From Ideonella azotifigens (lineage in GTDB: Bacteria; Pseudomonadota; Gammaproteobacteria; Burkholderiales; Burkholderiaceae_C): DNA of 39,670 bases. The position numbers and the translations under genes are program-made. The stretch lies in contig NZ_VIDT01000003.1 in assembly GCF_006519715.1 (NCBI RefSeq), positions 1-39,670 of the forward strand, read 5' to 3'. The notes under the pieces are model-generated. The model was given only the letters and a program-made list of their open reading frames with translations, had not been told where the DNA came from and did not search any database. Shown piece by piece: positions 9,509 through 28,031 of the stretch (positions are counted from its first letter, which is position 1; the number at the start of each line of letters is the position of its first letter).

Positions 9509-9687
9509 CCCAAGGCGACACCATTGGCGTGCTTGCCGCGACCATTTCCCGCTTCGCGCCGCGCTTGATGCGCGGCGCGAATGCCATTTACGTCGTTGAC
9601 GCGCGGTCGATGCGCAATGCCAGGAGTGTTTCGGAGACGCGAATGTCGCCTACGAGTACGCCACTGCACACGGTCGGGGCCCAATGA
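9505..9687 (+). CDS. Small coupled ORF of unknown function, or gene remnant
   Basis: A 60-codon frame that exactly fills the space between the SDR gene and wzx, with 4-base overlaps at both ends (ATGA at 9505 and 9684). No ribosome site of its own, no recognisable family, no clear membrane segment. It contains a perfect 12-bp hairpin. In another frame, which runs into wzx, the codons just upstream of wzx read GDANVAYEYATAHGRGP and look more protein-like, so the interval may be the decayed remnant of a lost gene. Real translation is uncertain. Confidence 0.25.
   Translation: MTQGDTIGVLAATISRFAPRLMRGANAIYVVDARSMRNARSVSETRMSPTSTPLHTVGAQ
9553..9581 (+). repeat. Perfect 12-bp inverted repeat (hairpin) between SDR and wzx
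   Basis: TTCGCGCCGCGC, a 5-base loop (TTGAT), then GCGCGGCGCGAA: every one of the 12 pairs matches and 10 are G-C. No T-run follows, so it is not a standard intrinsic terminator. In RNA it would be a very stable stem, possibly a processing or stability element that separates the sugar-synthesis genes from the assembly genes. Confidence 0.7.
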
Positions 9688-11063
9688 CCGACGATGTTGC
9701 CATTTCTGTTGCCGCCCGGAGAGGCGGGCGGTTTGCCCACCTGCGCAGCGTGATTGGCCTTGATTTCCATGTCTTGGTAACTTTGATGTTCCGCAGCTGG
9801 ACCATCCTGGCCGGCGCCGCGACGATGGTGCTGCTGCCGCTCTGGCTCACCCCGACGCAGCAGGGTTACTACTACACCTTCGCCAGCATACTGGCGTTAC
9901 AGGTGTTCTTCGAACTCGGCTTCAACCAGATCGTGGTGCAGCTCGTCAGCCACGAGGTGGCGCATCTCGAGATCGACGCCGAGGGTGCGCTCCGCGGCGA
10001 GGCTGTCCACCTTGATCGCCTCGGCTCGCTGGCGCGGCTGATGCGCCGCTGGTATGCAGTCGCTGCCTGCCTGTTCGTGGCACTTGGTGGCCTGGCCGGG
10101 ATTACGTTCTTCTCGCACAAGGGCGTGCTGCCGCCGTCGTCGTGGCTAGGTGCATGGCTGCTGCTGACCTGCGCGTCGGCGGTCAATCTCTACCTGAGCC
10201 CGGGGCTGGCGATGATGGAGGGTGCCGGGCGCGTCGGCCAGGTCGCGCGCCTGCGTCTGGTGCAGTCGTGCATCGGGTACCTGTGCCTGTGGTCGGCGCT
10301 GTATCTCGATGCCGGTCTGTGGGCGACGGCTGCTGCGCCTCTCGTCGGCGCGAGCGGGACCGGCTGGTGGCTGCGCAAGCGCGGCGACATGCTTCGTCGC
10401 GTGGCGTTGCGCGAGGTGCCGCAGGCCCATCGCCTGCTGTGGCGGCGCGACGTATTCCCGTTCCAGTGGCGCATCGCGCTCAGCTGGGTAAGCGGCTACT
10501 TCATCTTCAACATGTTCACACCGCTGGTGTTCTCGCGCGTGGGCCCGGTGGAGGCCGGCAGGCTCGGCCTCGCGCTGACCATGTTCAACGCGGTCTCGAC
10601 GATCGGCATGAGCTGGATCAACGCGCGCAACCCGCAGTTCACGATGCACATCTCGCGCGGCGAGCGCGCAGCTCTTAATGCGCTGTTCGGCAATGTCCTG
10701 TTGCGGTCCTGCGTTGCGACGGCGCTGCTGTCGACCCTAGTGGCGGGTGGCGCCGCGCTGCTGGCGGTCGCGGGCGTGCCGGCGATGGCGCGCATCGCGT
10801 CGCCGGCTGTGCTGGCGTGCCTGGCCTGGGCGACGGTCGTCAACAGCGTCGTCTTCGGCGCGGCCGCCTTTATGCGCGCCCACCGCGAGGAGCCGATGCT
10901 GCCGGTCTCCATCGTCACGGCTGTGCTGACCGCAGCGGCCGCCTGGTTCGGCTCGCGCGTCGGCGTGCTGCCGATGATGCTGCTGTACGCGGTGGTGCCC
11001 ACCTTCGTCACGCTGCCCTGGACGCTGATGCTCCTGTCCCGCTATCTCAAGAGAACTGCCTGA
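9684..11063 (+). CDS. wzx: Wzx-like O-unit flippase
   Basis: 459-residue polytopic inner-membrane protein of the MOP/Wzx family, expected to flip the undecaprenyl-linked repeat unit to the periplasm. About a dozen hydrophobic segments are spread over the protein, starting with FHVLVTLMFRSWTILAGAAT near residue 30. The early LWLTPTQQGYYYTFASILALQ region, in which an aromatic/Gly block follows the first helix, is typical of Wzx/RfbX proteins. The ATG overlaps the preceding small frame. Low sequence conservation in this family makes the sugar specificity unreadable. Its partner polymerase gene is on the opposite strand about 9 kb away. Confidence 0.85.
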   Translation: MTDDVAISVAARRGGRFAHLRSVIGLDFHVLVTLMFRSWTILAGAATMVLLPLWLTPTQQGYYYTFASILALQVFFELGFNQIVVQLVSHEVAHLEIDAEGALRGEAVHLDRLGSLARLMRRWYAVAACLFVALGGLAGITFFSHKGVLPPSSWLGAWLLLTCASAVNLYLSPGLAMMEGAGRVGQVARLRLVQSCIGYLCLWSALYLDAGLWATAAAPLVGASGTGWWLRKRGDMLRRVALREVPQAHRLLWRRDVFPFQWRIALSWVSGYFIFNMFTPLVFSRVGPVEAGRLGLALTMFNAVSTIGMSWINARNPQFTMHISRGERAALNALFGNVLLRSCVATALLSTLVAGGAALLAVAGVPAMARIASPAVLACLAWATVVNSVVFGAAAFMRAHREEPMLPVSIVTAVLTAAAAWFGSRVGVLPMMLLYAVVPTFVTLPWTLMLLSRYLKRTA

Positions 11064-13774: not shown

Positions 13775-13808
13775 CCTACCTATTTCTTGGCACTTTCATC
13801 GAGCGACC

Positions 13809-14399
13809 TTGACCACACTGTTTCAACACAATCTCCAGCAGCATCTCGAGCTGTTCAGCCGTCTCAGCGTCCTCGACGACAGCGTCATGGGAGCCGCGCA
13901 GGCAATCGCCGATTGCCTGCGTGCCGGCGGCAAGCTGATGATCTGCGGCAACGGCGGCTCGGCCGCCGACAGCCAGCACATCGCCGCCGAATTCACTGGG
14001 CGCTTCATCAAGGATCGCAAGCCACTCGCCGCGATGGCGCTCAGCACGGACAGCTCCGCGCTGACCTGCATCGGCAACGACTACAGCTTCGCGGAGATCT
14101 TCTCTCGCCAGGTCGCCGGGTTGGGGCGCCCGGGGGACTGCCTGCTGGGCATCTCGACCTCGGGCAACTCGGCGAACGTGATCCGCGCGGTGGAAGTCGC
14201 GCGCGGGATGGGTATGCGCACGATCGGCCTACTCGGCCGAGACGGTGGCAAGCTCGCGACGCTGTGCGATTGCGCCATCGTCGTCCCCGCCGAAGTCACG
14301 GCGCGTATCCAGGAGGCACATATCCTGATCGGCCACTCGATCTGCGGCGCGGTCGAGCAGTCGCTGGGGTTGGTGCCGCAGCACGGGGAAGCCGAATGA
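13809..14399 (+). CDS. gmhA: Sedoheptulose-7-phosphate isomerase
   Basis: First step of ADP-heptose synthesis: sedoheptulose-7-phosphate to D-glycero-D-manno-heptose-7-phosphate. A SIS-domain protein; the phosphate-binding motifs CGNGGSAADSQH and GISTSGNSANV are both present, as is the C-terminal EAHILIGHSIC helix with active-site residues. No suitable ATG exists. TTG at 13809 gives 196 residues, the normal family length; the open frame further upstream overlaps the preceding glycosyltransferase. The stop overlaps the hldA start (ATGATG). Confidence 0.95.
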   Translation: MTTLFQHNLQQHLELFSRLSVLDDSVMGAAQAIADCLRAGGKLMICGNGGSAADSQHIAAEFTGRFIKDRKPLAAMALSTDSSALTCIGNDYSFAEIFSRQVAGLGRPGDCLLGISTSGNSANVIRAVEVARGMGMRTIGLLGRDGGKLATLCDCAIVVPAEVTARIQEAHILIGHSICGAVEQSLGLVPQHGEAE

Positions 14400-15334
14400 T
14401 GCCGTCGCGGGAGCAATTGTCTGCGTGCCGTGTGCTGGTCGTTGGCGACGCGATGTTGGACCGTTATTGGTTTGGCTCTGTTGACCGCGTCTCGCCCGAG
14501 GCGCCGGTGCCGGTGGTACGCGTGCAACGCGAGGAAGATCGGCTCGGCGGTGCAGCCAATGTCGCGCTGAACGTCAAGCGACTCGGCGCGGCGTCGACGT
14601 TGCTGACTGTGGTAGGTGACGACGCGCCGGCTCGGACGCTGGAGTCGCTGCTGGAGCGCGAAGGCGTTGCCGCGCGGCTCGGGCGTGACGAGAAGCTCAC
14701 CACGATCGTCAAGCTGCGCGTGATCGGGCGTGCGCAGCAGTTGCTGCGCGTCGACTTCGAGAGCACACCTGACCATGAAATTTTGACGCAAATGTTGGCC
14801 GACTTCGCACAAGCGCTGGGAAGTTCCGATGCCGTGCTCTTCAGCGACTACGGCAAGGGCGGCCTGACGCACATACCGCGCATGATCGAGCTGGCCCGCG
14901 CGGCGGGCAAGCCGGTGTTGGTCGACCCCAAGGGGAGCGACTATGGCCGCTATGCCGGTGCGACTGTGCTGACGCCGAACCGTGCCGAACTGGCCCAGGT
15001 CGTGGGCGCCTGGTCGGACGAGGCCGACCTGCGTCGGCGCGCGAGGCGCCTGCGCGAGGACCTGCAGCTCGATGCGCTGCTTGTTACCCGGTCCGAAGAA
15101 GGCATGAGCCTGTTCGACGGCGTTGGTGACAGCGGCCAGCTCGACGTAGCGGCGCTGGCCCGCGAGGTGTTCGACGTGACGGGCGCGGGCGATACCGTGA
15201 TCGCGACGCTGGCCGCGATGCTCGGCGTGGGCATGTCGATGCGAGATGCCATCCAGGTTGCCAACCGTGCCGGCGGCATCGTCGTCGGCAAGTTTGGGAC
15301 CGCCACAGTGAGTTACGAGGAGCTGTTTGAATGA
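14396..15334 (+). CDS. hldA: D-glycero-beta-D-manno-heptose-7-phosphate kinase
   Basis: PfkB/ribokinase-family kinase equal to the N-terminal half of E. coli HldE (RfaE domain I); phosphorylates heptose-7-phosphate at C1. 312 residues from the ATG at 14396; the second ATG at 14399 is equally possible. Seen: [12 protein letters not shown] near the N-terminus, GGAANVALN substrate motif, VDPKGSDY, and the C-terminal anion-hole/catalytic motif [12 protein letters not shown] containing the base Asp. The adenylyltransferase half is a separate gene (16344), the arrangement of Burkholderia and Neisseria rather than of enterics. Confidence 0.95.
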
Positions 15335-16347
15335 GAGTCGTCGTCACCGGCGCTGCTGGTTTCATTGGGTCCAACATCGTCCGCGGGCTCAACGCGCTCG
15401 GCATCGACGACGTCATTGCGGTCGACGATCTGACCGACGGACCGAAGTACCGCAACCTCCTGGGCGCCCAGCTGTCCGACTACTTTGACAAGGACGAGTT
15501 CTACACGCGCTTTGCACGCGGCGAGTTAGGCCATGTGGACGTGGTCATGCACGAGGGCGCATGCTCCGACACCATGGAGCACGATGGACGCTTCATGTTG
15601 GAGAACAACTATCGCTGCTCGAAGATGCTGCTTGATGCCTGCATGGCGCAGGGTACGCGGCTGCTTTATGCATCGTCTGCAGCAACTTACGGCGGCAGCT
15701 CGTGTTTCCGCGAGGAACCGGAGTTCGAGCAGCCGCTCAACGTCTACGGCTACTCCAAGCTGCTGTTCGACAACGTCGTGCGCCGCATGGTCGCACGGGC
15801 GCCGTACCAGGTCGCTGGGTTTCGCTACTTCAACGTTTATGGGCCGCGGGAGCAGCACAAGGGCCGCATGGCCTCGGTTGCCTTCCACCACTACAACCAG
15901 TTCATCGAGAACGGCTGCGTGCGCCTGTTCGGCGAGTATGGCGGCTACGGGCCAGGCCAACAGGAACGCGACTTTGTCTTCGTCGACGATGTTGTCGCCG
16001 TGAAGCTGTGGTTCCTACAGAATCCGCAGGCGCGCGGCATCTTCAATCTTGGCACTGGCTCTGCGCAGCCGTTCAACGATGTCGCCTTGGCTAGCGTTAA
16101 CACCGCGTTGACCTTGCGCGGTGAGGCAGCCCGCCCGCTGGAGCAATTGCTGAAGGACGGTCTCGTCGAGTACATCGGCTTCCCGCAGGCGCTGGTCGGA
16201 AAGTACCAGTGTCATACGCAGGCCGACCTGACGGCCCTGCGCTCGACCGGCTGTGACCACGAGTTCACCGACGTGGCGTGCGGCGTTGATCGCTACGTGC
16301 GCTGGCTTCACGAGAGCGCGGTCCATCCCGCTGCGGCTGCCGCATGA
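15331..16347 (+). CDS. hldD: ADP-L-glycero-D-manno-heptose 6-epimerase
   Basis: Last step of the pathway: epimerises ADP-D,D-heptose to the L,D form using NADP. 338 residues, extended SDR. Seen: the nucleotide motif [10 protein letters not shown] (7-16), the family-specific [10 protein letters not shown], the active-site YGYSK, and [20 protein letters not shown], all HldD hallmarks. The ATG overlaps the hldA stop and its own stop overlaps the hldC start. Also called rfaD/gmhD. Confidence 0.97.
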
Positions 16348-16832
16348 GTGCGGGCCTGGCGGACAAGATCGTTCTTGACGACGCGACGCTCGCGCAGCGC
16401 GTCGCGGCGCTTCCGCGCCCGCTGGTTTTCACGAACGGCGTGTTCGACATCCTTCACCGCGGGCATGTGAGCTACCTGGAGGCAGCGCGAGCACTTGGCG
16501 GTGCACTGGTGCTGGGACTCAACAGCGACGCCTCTGCGCGCCTGCTGGGCAAGGGGCCTGATCGCCCGCTCAACGGCGAGCTCGATCGCGCCTTCGTGCT
16601 CGCCGGGTTGGCATCGGTATCACTGATCGCGTTCTTCGACGAGCGCACGCCGGTGGCGCTGCTCACGCAAGTGCGTCCCGATGTCTATGTGAAGGGCGGC
16701 GACTACGACATGGAGACACTCGAAGAGACGCGACTCACGCGTTCGTGGGGGGGGCGCGCCATCGCGATCTCCTTCGTTGACGGCTTCTCCACCACCGCAT
16801 TGGTGCGCCGCATCCGCGGCACAGACGCATGA
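16344..16832 (+). CDS. hldC: D-glycero-beta-D-manno-heptose-1-phosphate adenylyltransferase
   Basis: Transfers AMP from ATP to heptose-1-phosphate; equals the C-terminal half of HldE (RfaE domain II). 162 residues. Cytidylyltransferase-like fold with [17 protein letters not shown] (the HxGH motif), [19 protein letters not shown] and [12 protein letters not shown], the typical RfaE2 set. Overlaps hldD upstream and gmhB downstream by 4 bases each, so the five heptose genes are translated as a block. Confidence 0.96.
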
Positions 16833-17380
16833 CGCGAGCGGTGTTCCTCGACCGAGACGGCGTCGTCAACCGCGATCATGCCTACGTGCATCGATGGGAG
16901 GACTTTGAGTTCGTGCCCGGCGCGCTTGATGCCGCGAGGCGACTCGCGGACGCCGGTTTTCGCCTGGTCATCGTGACCAACCAGTCCGGCATCGCTCGCG
17001 GTTACTACACCGAGGCGCAGTACTTCGCGCTGACCGAGCGCATGTGTGCGGTCTTCGAGCGGCAAGGCGCGCCGCTGGCCGCCGTTTACCATTGCCCGCA
17101 CCATCCCGCCGGCAGCGTCGTCGCCTTCGCACGCGAGTGCGACTGCCGCAAGCCGCGCCCAGGCATGATCCTGCGCGCCGCCGCAGAGCACCTGCTCTCG
17201 TTGCCGGAGTCGATTCTGGTTGGCGACAAGCTCTCGGACATTGAGGCCGCGCGTGCCGCAGGCGTAGGGCGTGCCTACCTCGTGCGCTCAGGCAACGAAG
17301 CGTCGATGCCCGATATCGGTACCGCTGACGCGGCCTACGCCGACCTGGCGCAGTGCGTGGACGCGTTGCTGCACACCTGA
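16829..17380 (+). CDS. gmhB: Heptose-1,7-bisphosphate 7-phosphatase
   Basis: HAD-family phosphatase that removes the C7 phosphate after HldA. 183 residues. HAD motif I is FLDRDGVVN (nucleophile Asp at residue 8), motif II VTNQSGIARG, and motif IV VGDKLSDIEAA. The Cys/His zinc-binding insert of GmhB is visible as CPHHPAG followed by CDCRKPRPGM. This completes the ADP-L,D-heptose route within five adjacent genes. Confidence 0.96.
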   Translation: MTRAVFLDRDGVVNRDHAYVHRWEDFEFVPGALDAARRLADAGFRLVIVTNQSGIARGYYTEAQYFALTERMCAVFERQGAPLAAVYHCPHHPAGSVVAFARECDCRKPRPGMILRAAAEHLLSLPESILVGDKLSDIEAARAAGVGRAYLVRSGNEASMPDIGTADAAYADLAQCVDALLHT

Positions 17381-17391
17381 CCCGTTTTCAG

Positions 17392-18462
17392 ATGGCTTCC
17401 CGCAAAGTCCTTTGCTTCATCGTCGCCCGTAACTTCGGTGACATCACGTTCATGAGCACGTATTTTCGCGAGCTGGCCGCGCGCGGCTACGCCGACGAGT
17501 ACATCGTGTGGACGCGCGCGCCCATGGGTTTTCTGTTCGACGGCATCCCGAACTGCACGGTGCTGTACTCGAAGTTCCCGGTGGGCTCGTTCGGCAACTT
17601 CCGCTGGCGCGACTGCCTCGCCTTTTTGCGAAGCGCCTGGAATGTGCGTCGCATGAGGCCGACTGTCTCACTCGACATGGTGGGCGACTTCCGGGAACGC
17701 TTCTTCGCTCGCCTGATCGGCTCTCATCGCCATTTGCACATTGGCTGGACGCGCGAGCACCCGCACCGCGGCATCATCCGCACCCCGTTCGGTGTCGGGC
17801 GCCCGGCGGTGCTCGTCGGGCCGGAGACGCCGAGCGTCTATGCGGCCTACACCCGCTTTGTCGACTACCTGCTTCGTGAGGCAGGCCTGGCCGACCGGCC
17901 CGGGCCGCTGCCGCCGCTGCGAACGCATGAGGCTGTACCTACGGTGGGACTGCATCCCTCGGCCTCACAGGCCTGCAAGCTGTGGCCGCAGTCGCACTGG
18001 ACGCAGCTCACGCAGGCGCTGCTGGGCGCGGGTGTGGATGTGGTCGCCTTTGGGGCGCCGGGCGAGCGCGACGCGCTTGAGGCACAGTTCGCGTCCTTCG
18101 GCGACCGCGTGCGCATCTCCACCGGCAGCATTCCGGAGTTCGCGCGCGAGCTCGCTCGACTCGACGTGTTGGTTGGCTTGGACAGCTTCTCCGTTCACAT
18201 GGCCGAGAACGTGGGTACGCCCTCGGTGATGATCGTCGGTCCAAACGACCCCGCGCTGTTTGCGCCGCCGCGCGCAGCGGTGCTCTCGGACAGCGGCGGC
18301 TGCGCTGCTTGGCCTTGCTACAACCGGCCGAGCTGCGTCGGGACGGCAGGTGAGTACGTCTGCATCCGCTCGATCTCCGTGGCGCGGGTGCAGGCTGCGG
18401 TGGCCGAGAGGTTGTTGGCTAGCCGCGCGGCCGAGGAGCAAGTGAGTGATGTCGCCTGCTAG
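17392..18462 (+). CDS. GT9 family (heptosyltransferase-like) glycosyltransferase
   Basis: 356 residues from the ATG 11 bases after gmhB; an in-frame GTG at 17353 lies inside gmhB and is unlikely. GT9 fold: the N-terminal segment VLCFIVARNFGDITF matches the usual start, the donor-binding half shows VGLHPSASQACKLWP, and LVGLDSFSVHMAENVGTPSVMIVGP is a clear variant of the ADP-heptosyltransferase D-S/T-G-x-x-H-x-A signature (kept here as separate motifs DSFSVHMA and GTPSVMIVG). Placed after the ADP-heptose genes, it probably transfers heptose, either to the LPS core or to this polysaccharide. Acceptor unknown. Confidence 0.86.
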   Translation: MASRKVLCFIVARNFGDITFMSTYFRELAARGYADEYIVWTRAPMGFLFDGIPNCTVLYSKFPVGSFGNFRWRDCLAFLRSAWNVRRMRPTVSLDMVGDFRERFFARLIGSHRHLHIGWTREHPHRGIIRTPFGVGRPAVLVGPETPSVYAAYTRFVDYLLREAGLADRPGPLPPLRTHEAVPTVGLHPSASQACKLWPQSHWTQLTQALLGAGVDVVAFGAPGERDALEAQFASFGDRVRISTGSIPEFARELARLDVLVGLDSFSVHMAENVGTPSVMIVGPNDPALFAPPRAAVLSDSGGCAAWPCYNRPSCVGTAGEYVCIRSISVARVQAAVAERLLASRAAEEQVSDVAC

Positions 18463-19375: not shown

Positions 19376-19459
19376 CCCGCATGACAGAATTACGGCGTGA
19401 GAGCAAGCAGCGCTGTGCTCGAACTAGCGGCTCAAGGACGGGCCATTGAAGGAAAGATG

Positions 19460-20272
19460 ATGAATCGAACTCAGCTCGCAGACGTCATTGTTGCGCGCCT
19501 AGAAGCAGAACAGGATGCGCTCCGGAACGCTTGGCAATCCAGCGGCGGCGTGAGCCATTTCACGGTTGACGATTTGTTGCCGGAGGAGATTGCGCAGCGC
19601 ATTCGAGCTGCCTTCCCTTCTGGCGAGTCGATGAAGATCAAGCGCAGCCTGCGGGAGCTGAAGTTCATCGCGGCGCAGATGAACGAGTACGACCCGCTGC
19701 TCGAGGAGGCCATCTACGCATTCCAGGACCCGCGCATTGTGGAGGTCGTCGGGCGCATCACAGGCTTGAAGAGCCTGGAGCCAGACGAGCAGCTCTATGC
19801 GGGCGGCATCTCCATGATGGTGAAGGGCCACTTTCTCAACCCGCATGTTGACAATTCACACGACAAGCAGCGTGAACGCTATCGGGTGCTCAACCTGCTC
19901 TACTACGTGTCGCCCGGCTGGAAGCGGGAGAACGGTGGCAACCTGGAACTGTGGCCCGATGGACCGACCGGGGAGCAGGTGACTGTCGAGAGCCGTTTCA
20001 ACCGCCTCGCCGTGATGGTCACCAACAAGAGTTCGTGGCATAGCGTGTCGCAGGTCCTGGTGGACAGCCGGCGTTGTTGCGTTTCGAACTATTATTTCTC
20101 GCAGGCCTCACCCGAGGGAGAGGACTACTTCCACGTTACATCGTTCCGTGGTCGTCCTGAGCAGAAGCTACGCGACTTGGTGCTGCGTGCTGACATCTCG
20201 CTGCGCATGGGCCTGCGCAAGCTGTTTCCTAAGGGCGTAGCCGAGAACAAACACTTCTACAACAAGAAGTGA
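19460..20272 (+). CDS. 2-oxoglutarate/Fe(II)-dependent oxygenase
   Basis: 270 residues from the ATG after AAGGA; one more ATG lies directly upstream (19457). The double-stranded beta-helix iron ligands are seen as His129-x-Asp131 (NPHVDNSH) and His194 (SSWHSV), with Arg204, ten residues later, placed to bind 2-oxoglutarate. Related proteins occur in polysaccharide and LPS loci, where they are thought to hydroxylate sugars or nucleotide-sugar intermediates; the substrate here is unknown. The C-terminal 40 residues are basic (RKLFPKGVAENKHFYNKK). It is the last plus-strand gene of the locus and ends 21 bp from the convergent wzy gene, with no T-run terminator visible between them. Confidence 0.85.
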   Translation: MNRTQLADVIVARLEAEQDALRNAWQSSGGVSHFTVDDLLPEEIAQRIRAAFPSGESMKIKRSLRELKFIAAQMNEYDPLLEEAIYAFQDPRIVEVVGRITGLKSLEPDEQLYAGGISMMVKGHFLNPHVDNSHDKQRERYRVLNLLYYVSPGWKRENGGNLELWPDGPTGEQVTVESRFNRLAVMVTNKSSWHSVSQVLVDSRRCCVSNYYFSQASPEGEDYFHVTSFRGRPEQKLRDLVLRADISLRMGLRKLFPKGVAENKHFYNKK

Positions 20273-20293: not shown

Positions 20294-21592
20294 TCACTGC
20301 ACGGGAGCCGGCAGCGTGGGGCGCGGCGCTCGGCGCCGCTGCGGCAGTAACCACAGAATTCCGCAGATGATCATCCCCTGCACAAGTAGCTTGAACGAGA
20401 TGTCCGCCGGATCGCGCCAGAAGTGGATGGCACAGGTCATTGAGACCAGGCCGAAAATCTGCTTGAACGGACCATCCCGCAGCGATCTGAACCAGACCGC
20501 GAACAGAGTCACCATCACGAACAGAAACACGTGCGGGTAGCTCGTGATGTAGTCAATTGTCGCGAACCCGCTCATGCCGCCTACCGGCGCCCACGAGTCG
20601 AAGCCCGCAGACAGAGCCAGGTTGTATGGACTAAGTGCCGTCATGTCGTCCTCCGACATGCCCAAGCGCAGGAAAGACGGAATCACGGCCAGCGTCAGCC
20701 AACTGGCGGTCGTCGCCGCCGACCCAGAGTGCCCGACAGCGCCCGATTGGTTGACCGAGTCCGCGATGCCTAGCGTCAGCGCGTTCAGGGCTGATTCCAT
20801 TACCAGGCCGTAGACCGGCCCCAGAACGTTCATTTCCTCGCCGCCGCCGCCGGAGCGCAGCAAGCCCACGCCGGAGCCGATCGAGACCACGATTGCTCCC
20901 ACGATCACCAGCTTGCGGCCGCTGATCGATCCGCGTAAGTACAGCAGGATGATCATGATCGCGAGTTCCTTGATTAGTACCAGACGCGTGCCTCCCATGA
21001 CGCGCAGCAGGGTGGTGAATGCATACATGCCCACGTACAGCGTCCACATGGGGCGCGAAGGGTGCTTGCCCAGGAGCACGAGAATGAAGCAGAGGAAAAT
21101 GATCTCATAGAGGCCTGCGACGAAACCCCAGTAGGGAATGTCCTCGTAGCTGTTAAGGATGTATGCGCCGGACAGGACGGTGCCAAATGAGTTGAGCAGG
21201 TGGATCTGGAATATTGACGCCAGCACCACGCTGGTGACGAACAGGCCGGGGAAAATCACGCTGCTGGACAGGCTCGCTACTTGTTCCCCGTTGATCGCGC
21301 GGCGCAGTTCTGCTGAAAGATTCAACGCACGGTCGACCAGCACCAGCACAACCAAGTACCAGAGCATCAAGAGCGTCTGCGCGTCGATACGGCGCTCATC
21401 CACGTAACGGCTCAAGACCGGCGCGTCGACGAACATCAGGGTGGCGGCCGGGCCGATCATGTATATGAACGCGGGCCAGATCAGCAAAATGACGTAGTTG
21501 CGCATCTGCAGATAGCGCACTGTCTGCCAGCTCAGCAGAACAAAGGCGCCCAGCGCGATCAGGATAGAGATCGTTGCGGGATCGTCGCTCAT
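20294..21592 (-). CDS. wzy: Wzy-like O-antigen/EPS polymerase
   Basis: 432-residue membrane protein with roughly ten or more hydrophobic segments and a large loop around residues 265-330 in the C-terminal half, the architecture of Wzy polymerases. Wzy proteins share almost no sequence, so the call rests on topology and on being next to wzz and wza in a locus with wzx. The ATG at 21592 follows GAAGGT; a frame open 27 bases upstream lacks such a site. An oligosaccharide ligase is a less likely alternative. It would polymerise flipped repeat units on the periplasmic side of the inner membrane. Confidence 0.72.
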   Translation of the reverse strand: MSDDPATISILIALGAFVLLSWQTVRYLQMRNYVILLIWPAFIYMIGPAATLMFVDAPVLSRYVDERRIDAQTLLMLWYLVVLVLVDRALNLSAELRRAINGEQVASLSSSVIFPGLFVTSVVLASIFQIHLLNSFGTVLSGAYILNSYEDIPYWGFVAGLYEIIFLCFILVLLGKHPSRPMWTLYVGMYAFTTLLRVMGGTRLVLIKELAIMIILLYLRGSISGRKLVIVGAIVVSIGSGVGLLRSGGGGEEMNVLGPVYGLVMESALNALTLGIADSVNQSGAVGHSGSAATTASWLTLAVIPSFLRLGMSEDDMTALSPYNLALSAGFDSWAPVGGMSGFATIDYITSYPHVFLFVMVTLFAVWFRSLRDGPFKQIFGLVSMTCAIHFWRDPADISFKLLVQGMIICGILWLLPQRRRAPRPTLPAPVQ

Positions 21593-21699
21593 GCAAATAC
21601 CTTCGCCGCCCGGCCCCACGTTAGAGGGGTGGGCGCTTCTTGCCGCAGTGAGGGCGGCGTTTCAGATGGCCCTTTGCTACGACTCGCGGCTGTTGTCAC

Positions 21700-22827
21700 T
21701 CAGGGGGCCATCAGATTTGAGCGACTTGACTGCCGCCGCGCCGCGAAGGCGAACCATGTGGCACTGACCAGTGCGCCGAGCAATGCCCCAATCAGCACAA
21801 ACCTCGACCGTGTGGGTCCAATCTTGCGCTCAGGAGGTGTTGCGATGTCCACAACCTGGATCAGCGCGCCCTCACGGCTCTCATCAATGCGTGCCGACTC
21901 ATAGTCGCGAGCAAAAAGTTCGAACAGCGTTTCTTGATATTTGAACTCGCGATACTTGCCGATGTAATCCCCCGAACTCGTTTGCTTGTCGGCCTGAGAC
22001 TCAAGTTTGGCAAGTTGGTCTGTCAGCGCATTCACCGATTCCTGAGCTGCTTGAACTTCCGGTGTGCCGTCCGCCAATGTTCGGCGGAGTACCTGGAGGC
22101 GGACCTGGCCCGCGGTGAGTGCTGCCTGCAGTCGCGAGTAGCCTTCGGCTGCGGAACGCGGTTCCGTCTTCAGTGCGCCGGCAGTGTAGCCACTGGACTC
22201 CAGTGCAAGTTGTGCCGCAGTAAGCTTGTCTCGGGTCTGCCGAAGCAACTGCTCGAAGAAAACCCGGCGCTGTTGGGCTGAGGTGACTGCGAGCGTATCG
22301 GTTAGTGCACGCAATTCCTCGACATACTGATTGGCAATCGCTGCCGCACGCTCAGGACTGGTGTCGGTCACTTCCACACGAATCAACCCATCACGCTTGC
22401 CAAGCAGGATGGAAGTCGCTTTGCCGAGGCGCTTGCGAGCGTCAACCATGAGGCGAACGTCCCACAATTTCAGAAGATCGAACTTCTTGATCAGCCTGTC
22501 CTGCACGGTAACACTCTGCATCAGCGCGATGTACTGTTCAGGCTGGCTTTTGCCGCTGCCTAGGCCCGCGAGCCCAGACAGCGCCCCTAGCGAGGCCAAT
22601 GCGCTGGCGGCCGAACTTTGCTGCTGCTGAGGAGGAAGGAACAAATTGCTTGCGGTAAACGTCGGTTTGACCAGGAAACTGGCCCCCGCCCCCAGTGCAC
22701 CGGCGACCACGGCTGCCAGCAGGGTTGAACGCCAGCGTTCCAGTGCAGGGGCATACAGGGCCAGCAAGTCGATGCGCTCGTCGTCGCTGACCGGGAATTG
22801 GGTCCTTGCGCGTTCAGTTTGCGTCAT
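21700..22827 (-). CDS. Wzz/GumC-like chain-length determinant (no kinase domain)
   Basis: 375-residue polysaccharide co-polymerase. Two membrane helices flank a periplasmic domain: the first at about residues 33-52 (LLAAVVAGALGAGASFLV), the second near 345-365 (FVLIGALLGALVSATWFAF). The N-terminal Wzz motif continues into a periplasmic region with a long helical, coiled-coil-prone part (residues about 190-290), and the Pro-rich PPERKIGPTRSR precedes the second helix, as in the family. The protein stops after that helix, so the cytoplasmic BY-kinase domain of Wzc is absent. It controls polymer length and probably contacts the Wza-like exporter encoded one base upstream. Confidence 0.9.
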   Translation of the reverse strand: MTQTERARTQFPVSDDERIDLLALYAPALERWRSTLLAAVVAGALGAGASFLVKPTFTASNLFLPPQQQQSSAASALASLGALSGLAGLGSGKSQPEQYIALMQSVTVQDRLIKKFDLLKLWDVRLMVDARKRLGKATSILLGKRDGLIRVEVTDTSPERAAAIANQYVEELRALTDTLAVTSAQQRRVFFEQLLRQTRDKLTAAQLALESSGYTAGALKTEPRSAAEGYSRLQAALTAGQVRLQVLRRTLADGTPEVQAAQESVNALTDQLAKLESQADKQTSSGDYIGKYREFKYQETLFELFARDYESARIDESREGALIQVVDIATPPERKIGPTRSRFVLIGALLGALVSATWFAFAARRQSSRSNLMAP

Positions 22828-22828
22828 C

Positions 22829-24754
22829 TCACAACCCCAGCGACTTGATACCGGCAACGCCCAAACCGAATTGATACAAGATCTGCGTCCAATCCTTGGC
22901 GTCCTGCACGAACGTGGTCTTGTTCGTCTCCTCGGGCACAAACACCGTGTCGCCTGGAAGCACAATTTGCGCTTCAAACGTTCGCTCGCCGTTCTGACGC
23001 GCGCTGACCACGGTGCCGTTGGCGCGGATCAGGAACATGCTTGCAGGATCGGCACCGCGGGTGGGCCCCCCAGCCTGGTCCACATAGTGTGAAATGGGTT
23101 TGTCACTTGCGTAGATGAAGCTACCCGAGTTGAACACGCTGCCGAACACGCCTACAGAAGTGCCCTTCGCAGGAATGCTAAGGCGATCCCCGTCTTCGAG
23201 CGCCATTGCCGGCAGCGCTGTTGCGTCAGGTGGCAGTTGGAGGACGACCCGACCTGTGGGACGGACCTGGCGAAGACGGTCCACCAAGCGAGCATTCGCT
23301 GCGTCAGCAGTCGCAAGCGTTGCGACCTCTTCGGTGGTCGCGACGCGTCTGCTCGATGCGCCCTTCGCGAGATCGGTTTCCAGGTCGCGAAGGGCCCGGT
23401 CGAAGTTCTGCTGCTGGGCTTGCCGAACGCTTTCCCGGGTGAATTCGGTGCCGTACAGGTAGGCATCCGGTGTGAAGCCACCAGCTGCCTGCACTGCATC
23501 CGCAAGGCTGCTGTTCGGCGGTAGCACATAGTCGCCCGGGCGTACGACTTCGCCCTCGACGCGTACACGCTTGTTTTGCTTGTCTTGCGGCAACGCGGCG
23601 CTGATTGCACTGAAGACCCGAACGAGGTCGCCTGCACCCAGGGGGCTGTGGGCGCCTTCCGATGCCAGCATGGAAACTTGTGCGACCCGACCTGTTGAGC
23701 GATCCGAAAGGCGTTCGACGGCCACGCGGGACCGATCAGCCACGGCATTGAATCCGCCAACCATCGCGATCGCGTCTACCAAGGTTTCGCCCGACTTGAG
23801 CTCGACAACCGCAGGCAGGTTCACGCTGCCGATCACGCCCACCTGAGGTCCCACCGGACCGATGTGGACGACGTCATCTGGCTGGACCCATTGATCGCCG
23901 CCACGGTCGCCCCTGACGATCAGGTCATAAAGATCCAGCTTTGCAACGACCTTGCCGCCTCGCCGCAACGTGATGTCGCGGAAGCTTCCGGCAGCACCCG
24001 GCCCGCCAGCGCGCATCACCGCATGCAGGATGGACGACAGCGCGCTAACGTTGACACTGCCGGGCCGCTGTGCGAAGCCGGTGACAAAAACTCGCACCGA
24101 CCGCAGTTGGCTCACACTGGCTGAGAGCTGGAAATTGCGGAACACCTGTGCTACGCGGCGGCTGATCACATTCCCTAGCTCGGCTTGTCGTGTTCCAGCC
24201 ACCGTCACCGTGCCCACGCGCGGCACGGCGATTTGCCCCGAACGGTCGACCGTCAGCCGCAGGTTGGCATCTGCCGAGCCCCACATCGTCAGGGCAATTT
24301 CGTCGCCGGGCTTGACGATGTAGTCGTCTGGCACCTGGGGTAGGGGATCCTGATTGCCCAGGCCGTCAGGCAGGTCCGTTAGCAGGTCTGCGCCCAGTCG
24401 GCGAATCTGTTCGCCATTGGTGTTGCCCGGCCCGTTGTTGGCAGAGCCGTTGTTGGGAGACAGTTGGTTCAGCCGGCTCGCCTGTGTCTGTACGTAGCGC
24501 TCGAACTCGTTGGGCACGTACGGCGTGCGTTGAATGACGATTTGACTGTCCCGCCGATTGCGGACGGCGTTCAGCGTGTTCGCAGTCTGGTCCGCTGCGG
24601 TGGGCCTCAACTGCGCCGAGCTTGTGTCCTGTTCGGCTGATGTGCCTGCGTTGCCCGACGACTGTTCCCGGTCAATGTTCTGTTGGGCAAACGCCGAGGG
24701 CAGCAGGCCATGAACGGCCATCAGCATCAAGCCGCAAAGGGCGAGGTGCTTCAT
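22829..24754 (-). CDS. Wza-like outer-membrane polysaccharide export protein, long form
   Basis: About 641 residues, far longer than E. coli Wza (379). Order: signal peptide (cleavage expected at AFA-QQ near residue 24), a Gln/Asn/Ser-rich linker, the polysaccharide export domain (VPDDYIVKPGDEIALTMWG), then several SLBB-type beta-grasp repeats, recognisable by VRVFVTGFAQRPGSV, VGVIGSVNLPAVVEL, VRVEGEVVRPGDYVL and VGVFGSVFNSGSFIY. The C-terminal helix is amphipathic and may form the outer-membrane pore. No lipobox cysteine stands at the cleavage site. A start 11 codons earlier (ATG at 24787) is possible; neither has a good ribosome site. A TAGAAT -10-like hexamer sits about 95 bases upstream (24854-24849). 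Confidence 0.92.
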   Translation of the reverse strand: MKHLALCGLMLMAVHGLLPSAFAQQNIDREQSSGNAGTSAEQDTSSAQLRPTAADQTANTLNAVRNRRDSQIVIQRTPYVPNEFERYVQTQASRLNQLSPNNGSANNGPGNTNGEQIRRLGADLLTDLPDGLGNQDPLPQVPDDYIVKPGDEIALTMWGSADANLRLTVDRSGQIAVPRVGTVTVAGTRQAELGNVISRRVAQVFRNFQLSASVSQLRSVRVFVTGFAQRPGSVNVSALSSILHAVMRAGGPGAAGSFRDITLRRGGKVVAKLDLYDLIVRGDRGGDQWVQPDDVVHIGPVGPQVGVIGSVNLPAVVELKSGETLVDAIAMVGGFNAVADRSRVAVERLSDRSTGRVAQVSMLASEGAHSPLGAGDLVRVFSAISAALPQDKQNKRVRVEGEVVRPGDYVLPPNSSLADAVQAAGGFTPDAYLYGTEFTRESVRQAQQQNFDRALRDLETDLAKGASSRRVATTEEVATLATADAANARLVDRLRQVRPTGRVVLQLPPDATALPAMALEDGDRLSIPAKGTSVGVFGSVFNSGSFIYASDKPISHYVDQAGGPTRGADPASMFLIRANGTVVSARQNGERTFEAQIVLPGDTVFVPEETNKTTFVQDAKDWTQILYQFGLGVAGIKSLGL

Positions 24755-24940
24755 CGGCCTGCGGCCGGGCTTTTGCAAAGAATACATGGATGACAGCGTG
24801 GGTCGTGTTGGTGTCGCGACGGGCTTGGACCCTTCGCGTGATCGGCAGATTCTAGCTAGCCAGCCTGATCGCTTTTGGCTGAGCGATATGGTGTTTAAGG
24901 CGCCGAGAGCTTCTCCCTGGAGGACTGGGGTTGGTTTACC

Positions 24941-26353
24941 TCAAGGCGTCTCGTCCAAACCGAGGCTGATGTGCGCCAGCGTTTCCGCCGCATTCTCGCG
25001 TTTCACAACCCCTGAGTTGTGCAGTCCAGGTTCGAGGACGACTAGCACGACCTGATCGTGTCGCTCCTTGGGGAGCAGCGCTCGCGCATTGTGATCGGAC
25101 ATCACGATGAGGCGGGTCGGCCGAGTGGTGCTGATCAGAGCTTGGGCCACGACATCGTCGACCGCGCCGAACTGCGTGAGGTAGCTCTGTTCGGTCATCT
25201 CGAAGGCCCGAGAGAACATGAGTCCGCCAGACTGTTCGCCGATCAACGGCAAATGCGGAACGTTGACATGGGCGTAGATGAAATCCGCACTCGGATCTGC
25301 CAATTGCGTTGCCAGCCAAGCCTGCGCGCCGGCCAGCGTGTCGCGATGGAGGGCTACGGCGGCGGGAGACTTGAGGTACTTGAATGGAAACTCCGCCGGC
25401 AGCAAAACGATGTTCGTCCACCATGGGTCGATGATCGAGAAATCGCTGTGCAGCGTTCGAGGATTGTAGATGCTGGTTGCATGGCATTCGTCGGCCTCCC
25501 GTGCAAACGCTCGGCAGTAATCGTGATACCAGCCCCAGATCCTCAAGGATTGCCCCTGTCGGTTGAGTGCATTGACAAGGCCATCGGGGGCGGCCGTGGT
25601 TGCTCCGAAAAGTGCGGGGATGGCGGATAGGGTGCCGCCGCCTGGCAGGTGGGCGTCGTGATGCAGCGTGGCCTCCGCCCGCAGGAGAGCAAGCGAAGGC
25701 CACGCCGAGAGGTCAGTTGCACGCTGACCGTAAAGGTAGTCGACCGACAGCTCGTCAAATAGCAGGACGACTGTTCGTGGTTCGCGGTGTGCGACTTGCG
25801 TACGCACCAGCCCCGCAACGGCGTGGGCAGTTGGTGACAGGTCGGCCAGCTGACGTTCCGCGAGGGATGGCGCACGCAGCAGATGGAATGCGAAAAGAAA
25901 CGACAGGGGCCAAAGGACCGCCAAAGTGCGCTGGACTCTCGATGTCGGATATTGGCCCGGTCGCAACACGGCCCATGCGCCGACCGTTGTGAGCATGATG
26001 GCCAAAGCGCCAACAACCCAGACCGCGTTGGCGCGGTGCGCACGCAGGATCGGGTCGAGCAATTGCAACCTGGTGAGCGCGGCCATGGCGAACCAGATGC
26101 CCACCAGCAACCACAGGATGGTGACTGCGTCACCGCCACGCCTGCCTCCGATGTGGCCGGCCAGCATCATCGTCAACCCCACCACCATGGCAGTCACCGT
26201 CCACGCTGCGGCGGTCTCGATGCTATCGAAGGCGGTCCAGTGCAGCCAGGCAGGCGTGGTCGCGAGCGCGTCTAACAGCGGAAAGAAGCCCAGCGTCGCC
26301 AACACGGTACCGCTGAGGAGTGGCTGCCGCCAGTGCCGCATTGATCCACTCAC
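24941..26353 (-). CDS. Membrane-anchored sulfatase/alkaline-phosphatase-superfamily protein
   Basis: 470 residues from a GTG overlapping the upstream stop (GTGA); ATG at 26341 is an alternative. The first ~165 residues carry about five hydrophobic helices, followed by a periplasmic catalytic domain. Superfamily residues seen: the metal-binding Asp in VVLLFDELSVD, a likely Thr nucleophile in GGGTLSAIPALFG, and the Asp-His metal pair in VMSDHNA. This is the layout of phosphoethanolamine/phosphoglycerol transferases and related sulfatase-like membrane enzymes. It may add or remove a charged group on the polysaccharide or on a lipid; the substrate is unknown. It forms one unit with the next two genes upstream. 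Confidence 0.82.
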   Translation of the reverse strand: MSGSMRHWRQPLLSGTVLATLGFFPLLDALATTPAWLHWTAFDSIETAAAWTVTAMVVGLTMMLAGHIGGRRGGDAVTILWLLVGIWFAMAALTRLQLLDPILRAHRANAVWVVGALAIMLTTVGAWAVLRPGQYPTSRVQRTLAVLWPLSFLFAFHLLRAPSLAERQLADLSPTAHAVAGLVRTQVAHREPRTVVLLFDELSVDYLYGQRATDLSAWPSLALLRAEATLHHDAHLPGGGTLSAIPALFGATTAAPDGLVNALNRQGQSLRIWGWYHDYCRAFAREADECHATSIYNPRTLHSDFSIIDPWWTNIVLLPAEFPFKYLKSPAAVALHRDTLAGAQAWLATQLADPSADFIYAHVNVPHLPLIGEQSGGLMFSRAFEMTEQSYLTQFGAVDDVVAQALISTTRPTRLIVMSDHNARALLPKERHDQVVLVVLEPGLHNSGVVKRENAAETLAHISLGLDETP

Positions 26354-27777
26354 GTCCTGCGCATAAAGTGGTGCAGCCTACGTCCGCCGGCCAGCGGATC
26401 GCTGAAGGCCAGGCACTCAAAATGCGGATCGAACGCTGCCCGGAACGCGTCTTCAGATAGCGTCCGCAGGTAGCTGGCGGTGATGCCACTGCGGGCGGCG
26501 AGAAGTTGCCGAGCCATGGGATCGTCCGGTGGGATGTACTCGACGACCGCATGTGGCGACAATTCTGCGAGGTAGGCCGCGATCGCGTCGAACGGCACCT
26601 GGCGCGAGATTGACAAGTGATGGATCAGTGCAAGGGACAGACTAAGGTCGCATTGCATACGCTGCGAGAACGAGGCGCGTTCTTGGCCTGCCCAGCCATG
26701 GCTAGGTGTCGGGTTGGTGAGGTCGACCCGCACCGTGTTGAGCAATGCTGCGTGAGGCGCAGCGAGGCTGCGTTCGTAGATCCCTTCGGCGCAGGCCGCG
26801 TCGAGTTCGACGGCCGTGCAGGCGACGTTGCGCGACGCGAGTTCATGCGCATAGTGGCCGTCGTTGGCGCCGAGGTCGATGGCCCGGGTTGGCCGAGCAC
26901 GGTCCACTGCCTCAAGCACGAACGCGAGCTTGCTCCGCGCCTCACTTTCTGTGTAAGTGTTGTGATTCCGGTAATCCGACCATTCGGAGGCTGCTTTGGT
27001 GCGCGGAACCAGCCCGCGTATCGCGGCTTCAAGTGAGTCTACGAGACGGAGACCGAACTGGGGCGCTTGTTCGGGTGGCATCGCATGTGCACTGCGGTCC
27101 AATGTCTCCGTTGCGGCACGGCTCGCCCGTCTCGCTGCGCGCGCATGCAGATGCAAATGCAGGGCCAGCCCTGGCTTCATCCAGGTGCGGGCAGGCAGCA
27201 TGGCGGAGCACACAGCCAGCGGCATGCCCTCCAGGTTTGTGCCCTGCAGCATTCGCAACGAGGGCAAATGAAAATATACGGCGAGTGGTCCCAAGAAGTG
27301 TTCGCAGAACTGACGGTATCCCAGCCATCGCCCGTCGTTCGGCAGGCGTGTGAATGACAGCAAGTCGATGAAGACGGGCTGGGATCCTCTGAACTGGACG
27401 TTGAACGCGCTGGCGTCTTTCAGCGTCATGCCGTGGCGTAGCGCTCGGCGTAACACTTCTAGTGTCAACAGGGAAGCGGCGTGGAGTTGTGCGTCGATCC
27501 ACTCCGATGGATAGCTGATGATTGGCAGTCGCTCGGCTTCCCAGGCCGCCCAATCCTTTGGCAGGCTCGGCGGGAGTTCAGCTACACCGCAATGTGCAAC
27601 CAGCAGGCCGGCGGCCACGAGTTCATCGTAGAGGCCCGAATCGAACAGCATCCGCATGTCGCCAATGGCGTCGGGATGTACGGCGCGTAGAAGCCTGCCG
27701 TCGCTTTCCAGTACAAAACCTGCTGGGTCACGAAACGAGGCGGGGTGGCGTCGTGTGGTTGCCTGGGCGTCCGTCAT
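26350..27777 (-). CDS. Kinase-like/SAM methyltransferase fusion (NoeA-like)
   Basis: 475 residues, two parts. The C-terminal part (about 270-475) is a class I SAM-dependent methyltransferase: motif I is AIDLGANDGHYA (299-310), then AVELDAACAEGIYERS and DLSLSLALIHHLSI. The N-terminal part (1-220) holds HGMTLKDASAFNVQF and VFIDLLSF. With Asp121, Asn126 five residues later and Asp138, these match the spacing of the catalytic loop and the metal-binding Asp of kinase-like folds. Proteins of this type are often labelled nodulation protein NoeA-like or plain methyltransferase. A role in modifying a surface glycan is inferred from the locus. Overlaps both neighbours by 4 bases. Confidence 0.82.
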   Translation of the reverse strand: MTDAQATTRRHPASFRDPAGFVLESDGRLLRAVHPDAIGDMRMLFDSGLYDELVAAGLLVAHCGVAELPPSLPKDWAAWEAERLPIISYPSEWIDAQLHAASLLTLEVLRRALRHGMTLKDASAFNVQFRGSQPVFIDLLSFTRLPNDGRWLGYRQFCEHFLGPLAVYFHLPSLRMLQGTNLEGMPLAVCSAMLPARTWMKPGLALHLHLHARAARRASRAATETLDRSAHAMPPEQAPQFGLRLVDSLEAAIRGLVPRTKAASEWSDYRNHNTYTESEARSKLAFVLEAVDRARPTRAIDLGANDGHYAHELASRNVACTAVELDAACAEGIYERSLAAPHAALLNTVRVDLTNPTPSHGWAGQERASFSQRMQCDLSLSLALIHHLSISRQVPFDAIAAYLAELSPHAVVEYIPPDDPMARQLLAARSGITASYLRTLSEDAFRAAFDPHFECLAFSDPLAGGRRLHHFMRRT

Positions 27778-28031
27778 TCGGCGGAATTTTTATCGGTGCC
27801 AACGCGTTGTCTCAGCCAGGTCCATCTGCTGCGCAACCAAGCCCTCACGGAACGCAGACCGACACCAATGCCGAACACCACGGCCAGCAGAGACTGAAAG
27901 ATCAGACTGCCGGAGCCCGGATCCAGGTAGGCGTGGGCAGCGACCGGCGCTGCAATCAATGCACCCCCACAAAAAATGATGCGCAGCGGGTCGGTCGCCT
28001 TAGTGAGGGGGGGCGTGGATTGGTCGGGCAT
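27774..28031 (-). CDS. Small membrane protein with YLDPGSGS motif
   Basis: 85 residues. A basic/polar N-terminus is followed by a hydrophobic segment (IIFCGGALIAAPVAAHA, possibly a signal peptide), the motif AYLDPGSGSLIFQ, a second hydrophobic helix (SLLAVVFGIGVGL) and a basic tail (RAWLRSRWTWLRQR). I recall similar YLDPG-S/T-GS proteins as small uncharacterised partners beside such methyltransferase and sulfatase-like genes; that is from memory, not checked. The ATG at 28031 was chosen because the 18 extra upstream codons look non-coding. It is the first gene of the minus-strand arm. Function unknown. Confidence 0.75.
   Translation of the reverse strand: MPDQSTPPLTKATDPLRIIFCGGALIAAPVAAHAYLDPGSGSLIFQSLLAVVFGIGVGLRSVRAWLRSRWTWLRQRVGTDKNSAE

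What the first reader, a model, noticed from the sequence alone, without database searches (positions are those of the whole stretch)
26350..27777. Kinase-like domain fused to a methyltransferase: possible chain-terminating enzyme analogous to WbdD
The N-terminal part has Asp121, Asn126 (+5) and Asp138 (+12) in a catalytic-loop/metal-loop arrangement like that of kinase-like folds; the C-terminal part is a SAM methyltransferase. E. coli O9a WbdD joins the same two activities (methyltransferase then kinase) to cap glycan chains with methyl phosphate. Here the order is reversed and the system is Wzx/Wzy type, so a cap on another glycan is a hypothesis.
Basis: partly seen in the sequence, partly recalled or inferred. 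Interest (0 to 1): 0.63.

Follow-up and report, generated by a model that had tools for sequence, protein, structure and literature searches.

The report
NoeA-family kinase–methyltransferase fusion enzyme
This gene encodes a predicted two-part enzyme (a kinase-like half and a methyltransferase half) of the widespread but biochemically uncharacterised NoeA family, which probably adds a methylated phosphate to a surface sugar molecule; the fusion itself has already been described in print.

Summary
The minus-strand ORF at 26350-27777 encodes 475 residues. Its N-terminal part models as a protein-kinase-like fold and its C-terminal part as a class I SAM methyltransferase. Asp121, Asn126 and Asp138 are invariant in 117 of 117 aligned family sequences (window included), as are Arg31 and Glu92.

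It does not qualify as a WbdD. It belongs to the NoeA/Lani_1194 kinase-methyltransferase family (33% identity to rhizobial NoeA), described as such in 2022 (PMC9758233). It is the middle gene of a recurrent module: a small one-helix membrane protein, NoeA, and a NoeB-like sulfatase/alkaline-phosphatase-superfamily protein. Here neighbouring genes overlap by 4 nt.

The WbdD analogy has content at the level of chemistry. WbdD sequences are the top PDB hits of the family profile. WbdD residues needed to methylate a sugar phosphate (His132, His133 and, in global alignments, Arg203) fall on or next to invariant residues. The domain order is reversed, and chain termination is not supported: no coiled coil, and no ABC exporter or WbdA-type gene in the 20 window proteins scanned.

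Best reading: phosphorylation, then phosphate methylation, of a cell-surface glycan precursor. Activity and acceptor are inferred. New member of a known, uncharacterised kind.

The parts
26350..27777 (-). NoeA-family kinase-methyltransferase, 475 aa (P0001)
   Evidence: 33% identity over residues 10-448 to NoeA of Sinorhizobium; AF2 model pLDDT 92.3, pTM 0.92
27106..27777 (-). kinase-like domain, residues 1-224, with R31, E92, D121, N126, D138 invariant
   Evidence: model of the domain alone pLDDT 92.4; listed Foldseek and VIA-align matches are nearly all kinases; 117 of 117 conserved
26353..27000 (-). class I SAM methyltransferase domain, about residues 260-475, with D301, G303, N305, G307, H386-H387, E413, R466 invariant
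27774..28031 (-). small membrane protein: signal-peptide-like segment, AYLDPGSGS motif, one hydrophobic stretch, basic tail (start codon chosen by me; the longest ORF starts at 28085); its stop overlaps the kinase-methyltransferase start by 4 nt
   Evidence: an ORF of this kind ends at the start of the family gene in 95 of 115 loci (window included), background 2 of 5386 other plus-strand ORFs; no Pfam, NCBIfam or PADLOC match
24941..26353 (-). NoeB-like sulfatase/alkaline-phosphatase-superfamily membrane protein, 470 aa (P0002); its GTG start overlaps the kinase-methyltransferase stop by 4 nt
   Evidence: 54.5 bits, E 4.6e-19 (search of one sequence) with the neighbour profile after its own rows were removed; D200, T241, H362, H367, D420, H421 conserved in 86 to 96 of 100 aligned rows
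22829..24787 (-). polysaccharide export protein (Poly_export, SLBB; Wza-like), context
21700..22977 (-). Wzz chain length determinant, context

Best explanation
A bifunctional cytoplasmic enzyme of the NoeA family. The N-terminal kinase-like domain transfers a phosphate from ATP to a hydroxyl of a cell-surface glycan precursor, probably lipid-linked. The C-terminal domain then methylates that phosphate with SAM, giving a methyl-phosphate decoration. The small one-helix protein encoded just upstream is proposed to hold the enzyme at the membrane and connect it to the NoeB-like enzyme, whose active site is expected outside the membrane and which would act on, transfer or remove the group there. 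Shown here by sequence and model: the two folds, the invariant catalytic residues, the recurrent gene module, and the alignment with WbdD's phosphate-methylating residues. Inferred: ATP use, phosphate as methyl acceptor, glycan as substrate, cellular location, the membrane complex.
For: Kinase fold and residues. The one small-molecule kinase among the 50 Foldseek rows is amicoumacin kinase AmiN (6sui, rank 30), the enzyme also reported as nearest PDB relative of the kinase part of the Klebsiella O7 methyl-phosphate terminator. Methyltransferase: the profile's four best PDB sequences are all WbdD (E 6.8e-7 to 1.1e-6). The WbdD alignment runs through the HH motif, and a second weak stretch pairs the loop around D121/N126/D138 with WbdD's D351/N356/D369 loop. 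WbdD H132A, H133A, R203A and Y16F lose methylation but not phosphorylation, and R203 is not conserved in NodS or RebM. H132/H133 align with H386/H387 in four of four hhalign runs. R203 aligns with R466, invariant in 117 of 117, in one of the two global runs and with R467 in the other; the family's R-x-[LI]-[YF] pattern and WbdD's R-P-M-Y favour R466. Glycan context: Wzz, Wza-like, glycosyltransferase and sugar-nucleotide genes in the window; sugar-nucleotide and glycosyltransferase-like neighbours elsewhere (named by eye); noeA lies beside nodL in rhizobia.
Against: I saw no report of activity for any member in the listings or in the passages opened. The methyltransferase stretch of WbdD (25.4 bits) scores no better than METTL5 (25.3 bits); WbdD leads because two stretches add up. 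HH is not specific to phosphate methylation. Structurally WbdD (Z 16.5, rank 25) is level with or below many unrelated methyltransferases (best Z 18.3; NodS 17.4). The R203 counterpart depends on the alignment, local alignments do not reach it, and Y16 falls on R270 in one global run and on a gap in the other. The kinase-domain profile alone finds no kinase in the PDB by sequence, and its listed TM-scores are below 0.5. Some recurrent neighbours do not look like glycan genes (by eye). A small protein was not found by the rule in 15 of 115 loci and a NoeB-like gene not in 28 of 118.
Confidence: 0.45

Rival explanations
1. The two domains act on different targets, or the kinase part uses ATP in another way (for example nucleotidyl transfer), with the methyltransferase modifying a sugar hydroxyl, an amine or another group.
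For: In the published homologue the ATP-site lysine is most likely replaced by arginine and no ion-pair glutamate was found; NodS, a methyltransferase of Nod factor (recalled), is as close structurally as WbdD (Z 17.4 versus 16.5); HH is not specific to phosphate.
Against: Catalytic-loop and metal-loop residues are invariant in 117 of 117; the paper reports both domains in 94% of about 2000 kinase-domain homologues, which favours one joint product; an Arg at or next to the R203 position is invariant.
Confidence: 0.3
2. WbdD-like chain terminator: the enzyme caps the non-reducing end of a growing polysaccharide with methyl phosphate and so sets its length.
For: Same two predicted activities; WbdD is the top profile hit; another kind of methyltransferase-kinase does this in Klebsiella O7. 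An ABC-transporter-like neighbour occurs in 6 loci elsewhere (named by eye).
Against: No coiled coil after the catalytic domains; no Wzm/Wzt or WbdA-type gene among the 20 window proteins scanned, while Wzz and Wza-like genes are present; the recurrent partners are a small membrane protein and a NoeB-like enzyme. Family members also lie beside nodL and in Methanoculleus.
Confidence: 0.1
3. The enzyme modifies a protein, perhaps its small membrane partner, not a glycan.
For: The small protein is the most constant neighbour seen (95 of 115), and its motif keeps Tyr (Cys once) and Asp and usually has Ser or Thr.
Against: The motif follows a signal-peptide-like segment in many members, so it is expected outside while the kinase is expected inside (inference from sequence, no topology tool run); the basic tail that would lie inside varies.
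Confidence: 0.1

Closest known systems
NoeA of Sinorhizobium (nodL-noeA-noeB operon) and Lani_1194 of PMC9758233
   Same: 33% identity to NoeA over 92% of the query; same domain order; invariant residues shared by the NoeA sequence in the alignment; gene order small protein - NoeA - sulfatase-like protein in Rhizobium sp. T1470
   Different: Here it sits in a polysaccharide cluster with Wzz and Wza-like genes instead of beside nodL; the window protein is on a long branch of its own. Lani_1194 itself was not fetched or compared
WbdD of E. coli O9a (kinase-methyltransferase chain terminator)
   Same: Kinase and methyltransferase in one chain; best PDB sequence match of the profile; HH counterpart and probable R203 counterpart
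   Different: Order reversed; no coiled coil; different partners; similarity seen with a family profile; Wzz/Wza-type context
Klebsiella O7 ORF6 N-terminal methyltransferase-kinase (PMC11231755, passages seen)
   Same: Both activities on one chain, phosphorylated and methylated products shown in vitro; kinase part nearest AmiN, which is also in this domain's list
   Different: Methyltransferase first, then kinase, carbohydrate-binding domain, coiled coil and glycosyltransferases; ABC-exporter pathway; not compared by sequence here
Lcin_0519 family (PMC9758233)
   Same: Kinase plus methyltransferase, found with envelope glycan genes
   Different: Treated there as a separate kinase-methyltransferase family with a different domain orientation; not compared by sequence here

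Membership tests
NoeA / Lani_1194 kinase-methyltransferase family | Homology over most of the length, kinase part first, methyltransferase second | tested here: met
NoeA / Lani_1194 kinase-methyltransferase family | Residues equivalent to PKA D166, N171, D184, with Arg at the K72 position | tested here: met
   D121, N126, D138 and R31 invariant in 117 of 117; published description; that R31 is the R38 of Lani_1194 is inferred
NoeA / Lani_1194 kinase-methyltransferase family | Immediate neighbour of alkaline-phosphatase fold (NoeB, Lani_1195; 38% of published neighbourhoods) | tested here: met
   P0002 scores 54.5 bits with the NoeB-like neighbour profile after its rows were removed; the set had been seeded with P0002 and a Rhizobium NoeB-like protein; its fold was not modelled and P0002 alone has no Pfam match
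NoeA / Lani_1194 kinase-methyltransferase family | Biochemical activity | not testable with these tools
   none reported in what I saw
WbdD | Methyltransferase domain followed by kinase domain | tested here: not met
   order reversed in models and alignments
WbdD | C-terminal coiled coil that recruits the polymerase | tested here: not met
   the modelled protein ends with the methyltransferase domain
WbdD | ABC-transporter-dependent O-antigen locus (wzm, wzt, wbdA) | tested here: not met
   present beside E. coli HS wbdD, absent from the 20 window proteins scanned; other window genes were not scanned
WbdD | Methylation residues H132 and H133 | tested here: met
   H386 and H387 in four of four hhalign runs, invariant
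WbdD | Methylation residues R203 and Y16 | tested here: inconclusive
   R203: R466 (invariant) in one global run, R467 in the other, not reached in local runs. Y16: R270 in one global run (Tyr in 82 of 117 sequences, Arg in the window), gap in the other; Y269 next to it is invariant
Protein-kinase-like fold | Fold similarity of residues 1-224 | tested here: met
   Foldseek best E 1.3e-4, 57 chains at E 0.001 or less, TM-scores (query) 0.32-0.49 in the 50 rows; best Z 10.0, rmsd 4.4, 185 aligned
Protein-kinase-like fold | ATP binding and phosphotransfer | not testable with these tools
   -

The most novel reading that the evidence does not exclude
The NoeA family, spread over bacteria and archaea, installs methyl phosphate on envelope or exported glycans by a route separate from WbdD: a permuted kinase-methyltransferase that nearly always works with a tiny Y-x-D-P-G membrane protein and usually with an extracytoplasmic sulfatase-superfamily enzyme. 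This three-part system would explain the role of noeA and noeB in Medicago host range.
Probability: 0.3. Interest if true: 0.75.

Novelty: new member of a known kind. Interest (0 to 1): 0.42.

Why it matters
noeA has been known since 1995 as a host-range nodulation gene (from the papers, which cite the original; the original itself is not held), but I found no report of its chemistry. If the methylation residues mean what they do in WbdD, the product can be predicted and tested directly. The constant small membrane partner, which has no match in Pfam or NCBIfam, gives a handle on how the enzyme is placed.

Tried and rejected
Single-protein scans of genome contigs and viral contigs found no confirmed relatives; an alignment query did. 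Searching 185 genomes for WbdD relatives matched 143 genomes, but the rows listed (a capped list) each cover one domain only, mostly the SAM-binding part, so no WbdD profile was built. The kinase-domain profile found no kinase by sequence in the PDB; I take its two hits at E above 1 (L15, a PTS protein) as chance. hhalign of the kinase profile against the WbdD kinase gave a weak local match with the A1 set (columns 107-163 against 136-194, p 0.014) and nothing useful with the A3 set. WbdD is not among the 50 rows listed for the kinase domain alone, which excludes nothing. A defence-system reading was dropped: one weak PADLOC match in the SAM-binding part. The Erm and TehB matches in NCBIfam lie far below their cut-offs and cover only the SAM-binding part, so a resistance reading is dropped. 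The promoter scan found no promoter-like site, and 5 terminator-like sites against 3.2 expected, which says nothing. The small-protein rule was first strict (70 of 118 loci), then widened after I looked at the misses, giving 95 of 115 (three loci left out for short upstream DNA). Of the 15 loci counted as having none, three (L054, L086, L091) have a strict-motif ORF elsewhere nearby. L053 and L107 carry the same contig; both are in the 118 loci, and L107 was dropped from the 117 sequences. The NoeB-like profile was iterated from two seeds and may include sulfatase-family proteins that are not true NoeB relatives.
Full report
What is there. The ORF at 26350-27777 (minus strand) encodes 475 residues as described. 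Its start overlaps the stop of a small ORF (27774-28031, start chosen by me) by 4 nt, and its stop overlaps the GTG start of the next gene (24941-26353) by 4 nt, so the three look translationally coupled.

Observation. D121, N126 and D138 stand in the stated spacing. In shuffled versions of the protein the same pattern occurs in 578 of 20,000 (3,099 of 20,000 with looser spacing), so the spacing alone proves little. The three residues, with R31, E92, S141 and P164, are invariant in 38 of 38 and 81 of 81 aligned sequences and in 117 of 117 non-identical sequences of the combined set, window included.

Fold. The full protein was modelled from 81 aligned sequences (pLDDT 92.3, pTM 0.92). Residues about 261-475 match class I methyltransferases (best Z 18.3, 182 aligned, rmsd 3.0), with WbdD at rank 25 (Z 16.5, 186 aligned, rmsd 3.0). 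The N-terminal 224 residues modelled alone (pLDDT 92.4) match kinases: Foldseek E from 1.3e-4, TM-scores 0.32-0.49, 48 of the 50 listed rows kinases; VIA-align best Z 10.0, 185 aligned, rmsd 4.4 (RNase L, whose matched part is its kinase-homology domain, recalled), then PKR, Pim1, PAK4, CK2 and others. The fold is kinase-like but distant. Strand and helix order suggest a short N-lobe.

Family. tblastn finds NoeA of Sinorhizobium at 33% identity over 92% of the query (pairwise). A 2022 survey of Legionella kinases (section 8 read in full, passages of section 9; PMC9758233) already describes this family, under Lani_1194 and NoeA, as kinase plus methyltransferase: Arg most likely in place of the usual lysine, both domains in 94% of about 2000 kinase-domain homologues, and neighbours Lani_1193 and Lani_1195 in 65% and 38% of 816 neighbourhoods, the latter (like NoeB) of predicted alkaline-phosphatase fold. 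The Fig. 6D legend sets its domains beside WbdD's; the text compares WbdD with another family, Lcin_0519. In the listings for NoeA and Lani_1194, and in the passages I opened in two further papers, I saw no biochemistry of NoeA. The original 1995 paper is not held.

The gene module. A small protein (about 50-105 residues as I chose the starts) ends at the start of the family gene in 95 of 115 loci, window included; it lies downstream only in 5 and was not found by the rule in 15, three of which do have such an ORF nearby. The rule was widened after I had seen the misses (strict rule 70 of 118; inspection). The motif is Y-[LIV]-D-P-G-[ST]-G in most, often after a signal-peptide-like segment and followed by a hydrophobic stretch and a basic tail. 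The widened rule hits 2 of 5386 other plus-strand ORFs. It has no Pfam or NCBIfam match. Whether it is the published Lani_1193 I could not tell. A NoeB-like gene lies within 9 kb, in the DNA held, in 90 of 118 loci; it is immediately downstream in 57 of the 104 with at least 1200 nt of downstream DNA and immediately upstream in 15; 28 of 118 have none. Of 100 aligned NoeB-like rows, 86 to 96 keep D200, T241 (92, with Ser in 5 more), H362, H367, D420 and H421, the residues I recall for alkaline-phosphatase-superfamily enzymes with a Thr nucleophile. Of three relatives scanned, two pass the Pfam Sulfatase cut-off and one lies below it. P0002 itself has no Pfam match but scores 54.5 bits with the neighbour profile once its rows are removed.

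Relation to WbdD. The family profile's best PDB matches are four WbdD sequences (E 6.8e-7 to 1.1e-6; next METTL5 at 8.3e-5). The score is a sum: 25.4 bits from the methyltransferase part, and 5.5 bits from a stretch where D121/N126/D138 meet WbdD's loop with D351, N356 and D369. D351 mutations abolish WbdD kinase activity (passages). In the methyltransferase, H132A, H133A, R203A and Y16F abolish methylation of the phosphate but not phosphorylation (section 6 read in full). H386/H387 align with H132/H133 in four of four hhalign runs. R203 aligns with R466 in one global run and R467 in the other, and is not reached in the two local runs. R466 is invariant in 117 of 117; the columns two and three further on are mostly L/I and Y/F, which fits WbdD's R-P-M-Y, so I take R466. 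Y16 has no firm counterpart (R270 in one run, gap in the other), although Y269 is invariant. HH is not specific to phosphate, while R203 is not conserved in NodS or RebM. Phosphate methylation is therefore the more likely chemistry, not a certain one. The kinase domain by itself gives at most a weak sequence match to WbdD's kinase.

Context and mechanism. Of 20 window proteins scanned, Pfam names Wzz, a Poly_export/SLBB protein, four glycosyltransferases (three GT2, one GT9) and several sugar-nucleotide genes. Among relatives, recurrent neighbours, named by eye from their sequences, include NAD-dependent sugar epimerases (19 loci), GT2-like proteins (10), mannose-1-phosphate guanylyltransferase (7), NodL-like acetyltransferase (6) and an ABC-transporter ATPase (6); other recurrent neighbours do not look glycan-related. 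I conclude that the enzyme most likely phosphorylates a glycan precursor and methylates the phosphate. Termination of chains as in WbdD is unlikely: no coiled coil, no exporter or WbdA-type gene among the window proteins scanned, and a Wzy-type chain grows at its reducing end (general knowledge), so a non-reducing cap would mark the first unit and not stop growth.

Distribution. 0 of 15 other genomes of the genus and 9 of 298 other genomes sampled from the family carry the gene. The nine form their own clade (support 0.979, midpoint-rooted tree) without the window protein, whose nearest leaves are Hydrogenedentes sequences at long distance. Horizontal acquisition is possible and was not tested further.

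Verdict. Observation confirmed; interpretation partly right; known family, new member. Interest lies in the untested chemistry of a widespread, symbiosis-linked family and in its small membrane partner.

Noticed in passing
27774-28031 (minus) and upstream of relatives: Tiny membrane protein with a conserved Y-[LIV]-D-P-G-[ST]-G motif, often just after a signal-peptide-like segment; no match in Pfam or NCBIfam; 95 of 115 loci.
   Followed up: partly
6601-8435 (plus): Two adjacent genes for the halves of a transketolase-like enzyme inside a sugar-nucleotide/polysaccharide cluster, with a DegT aminotransferase-type gene and an NAD/FAD/2Fe-2S reductase gene nearby; may mean an unusual deoxy or branched sugar.
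   Followed up: no
13787-18462 (plus): PfkB kinase, epimerase, cytidylyltransferase-like and HAD phosphatase genes in a row, as in ADP-heptose synthesis, followed by a GT9 heptosyltransferase-type gene.
   Followed up: no
19397-20272 (plus): 2OG-Fe(II) oxygenase gene at the end of the plus-strand part of the cluster.
   Followed up: no
9684-11063 (plus) and 20294-21619 (minus): Two proteins in the cluster without a Pfam match at E 0.001; the second looks like a multi-helix polymerase by eye.
   Followed up: no
L017 and L043-L047, L049: Variants of the small protein motif without Pro-Gly (YLDAASA in Novosphingobium, YIDGGSA in same-family genomes) keep only Tyr-x-Asp.
   Followed up: no
window 26350-27777 against L043-L051: The nine homologues sampled from the window's own family form a clade that excludes the window protein; the gene is absent from 15 other genomes of the genus.
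   Followed up: partly
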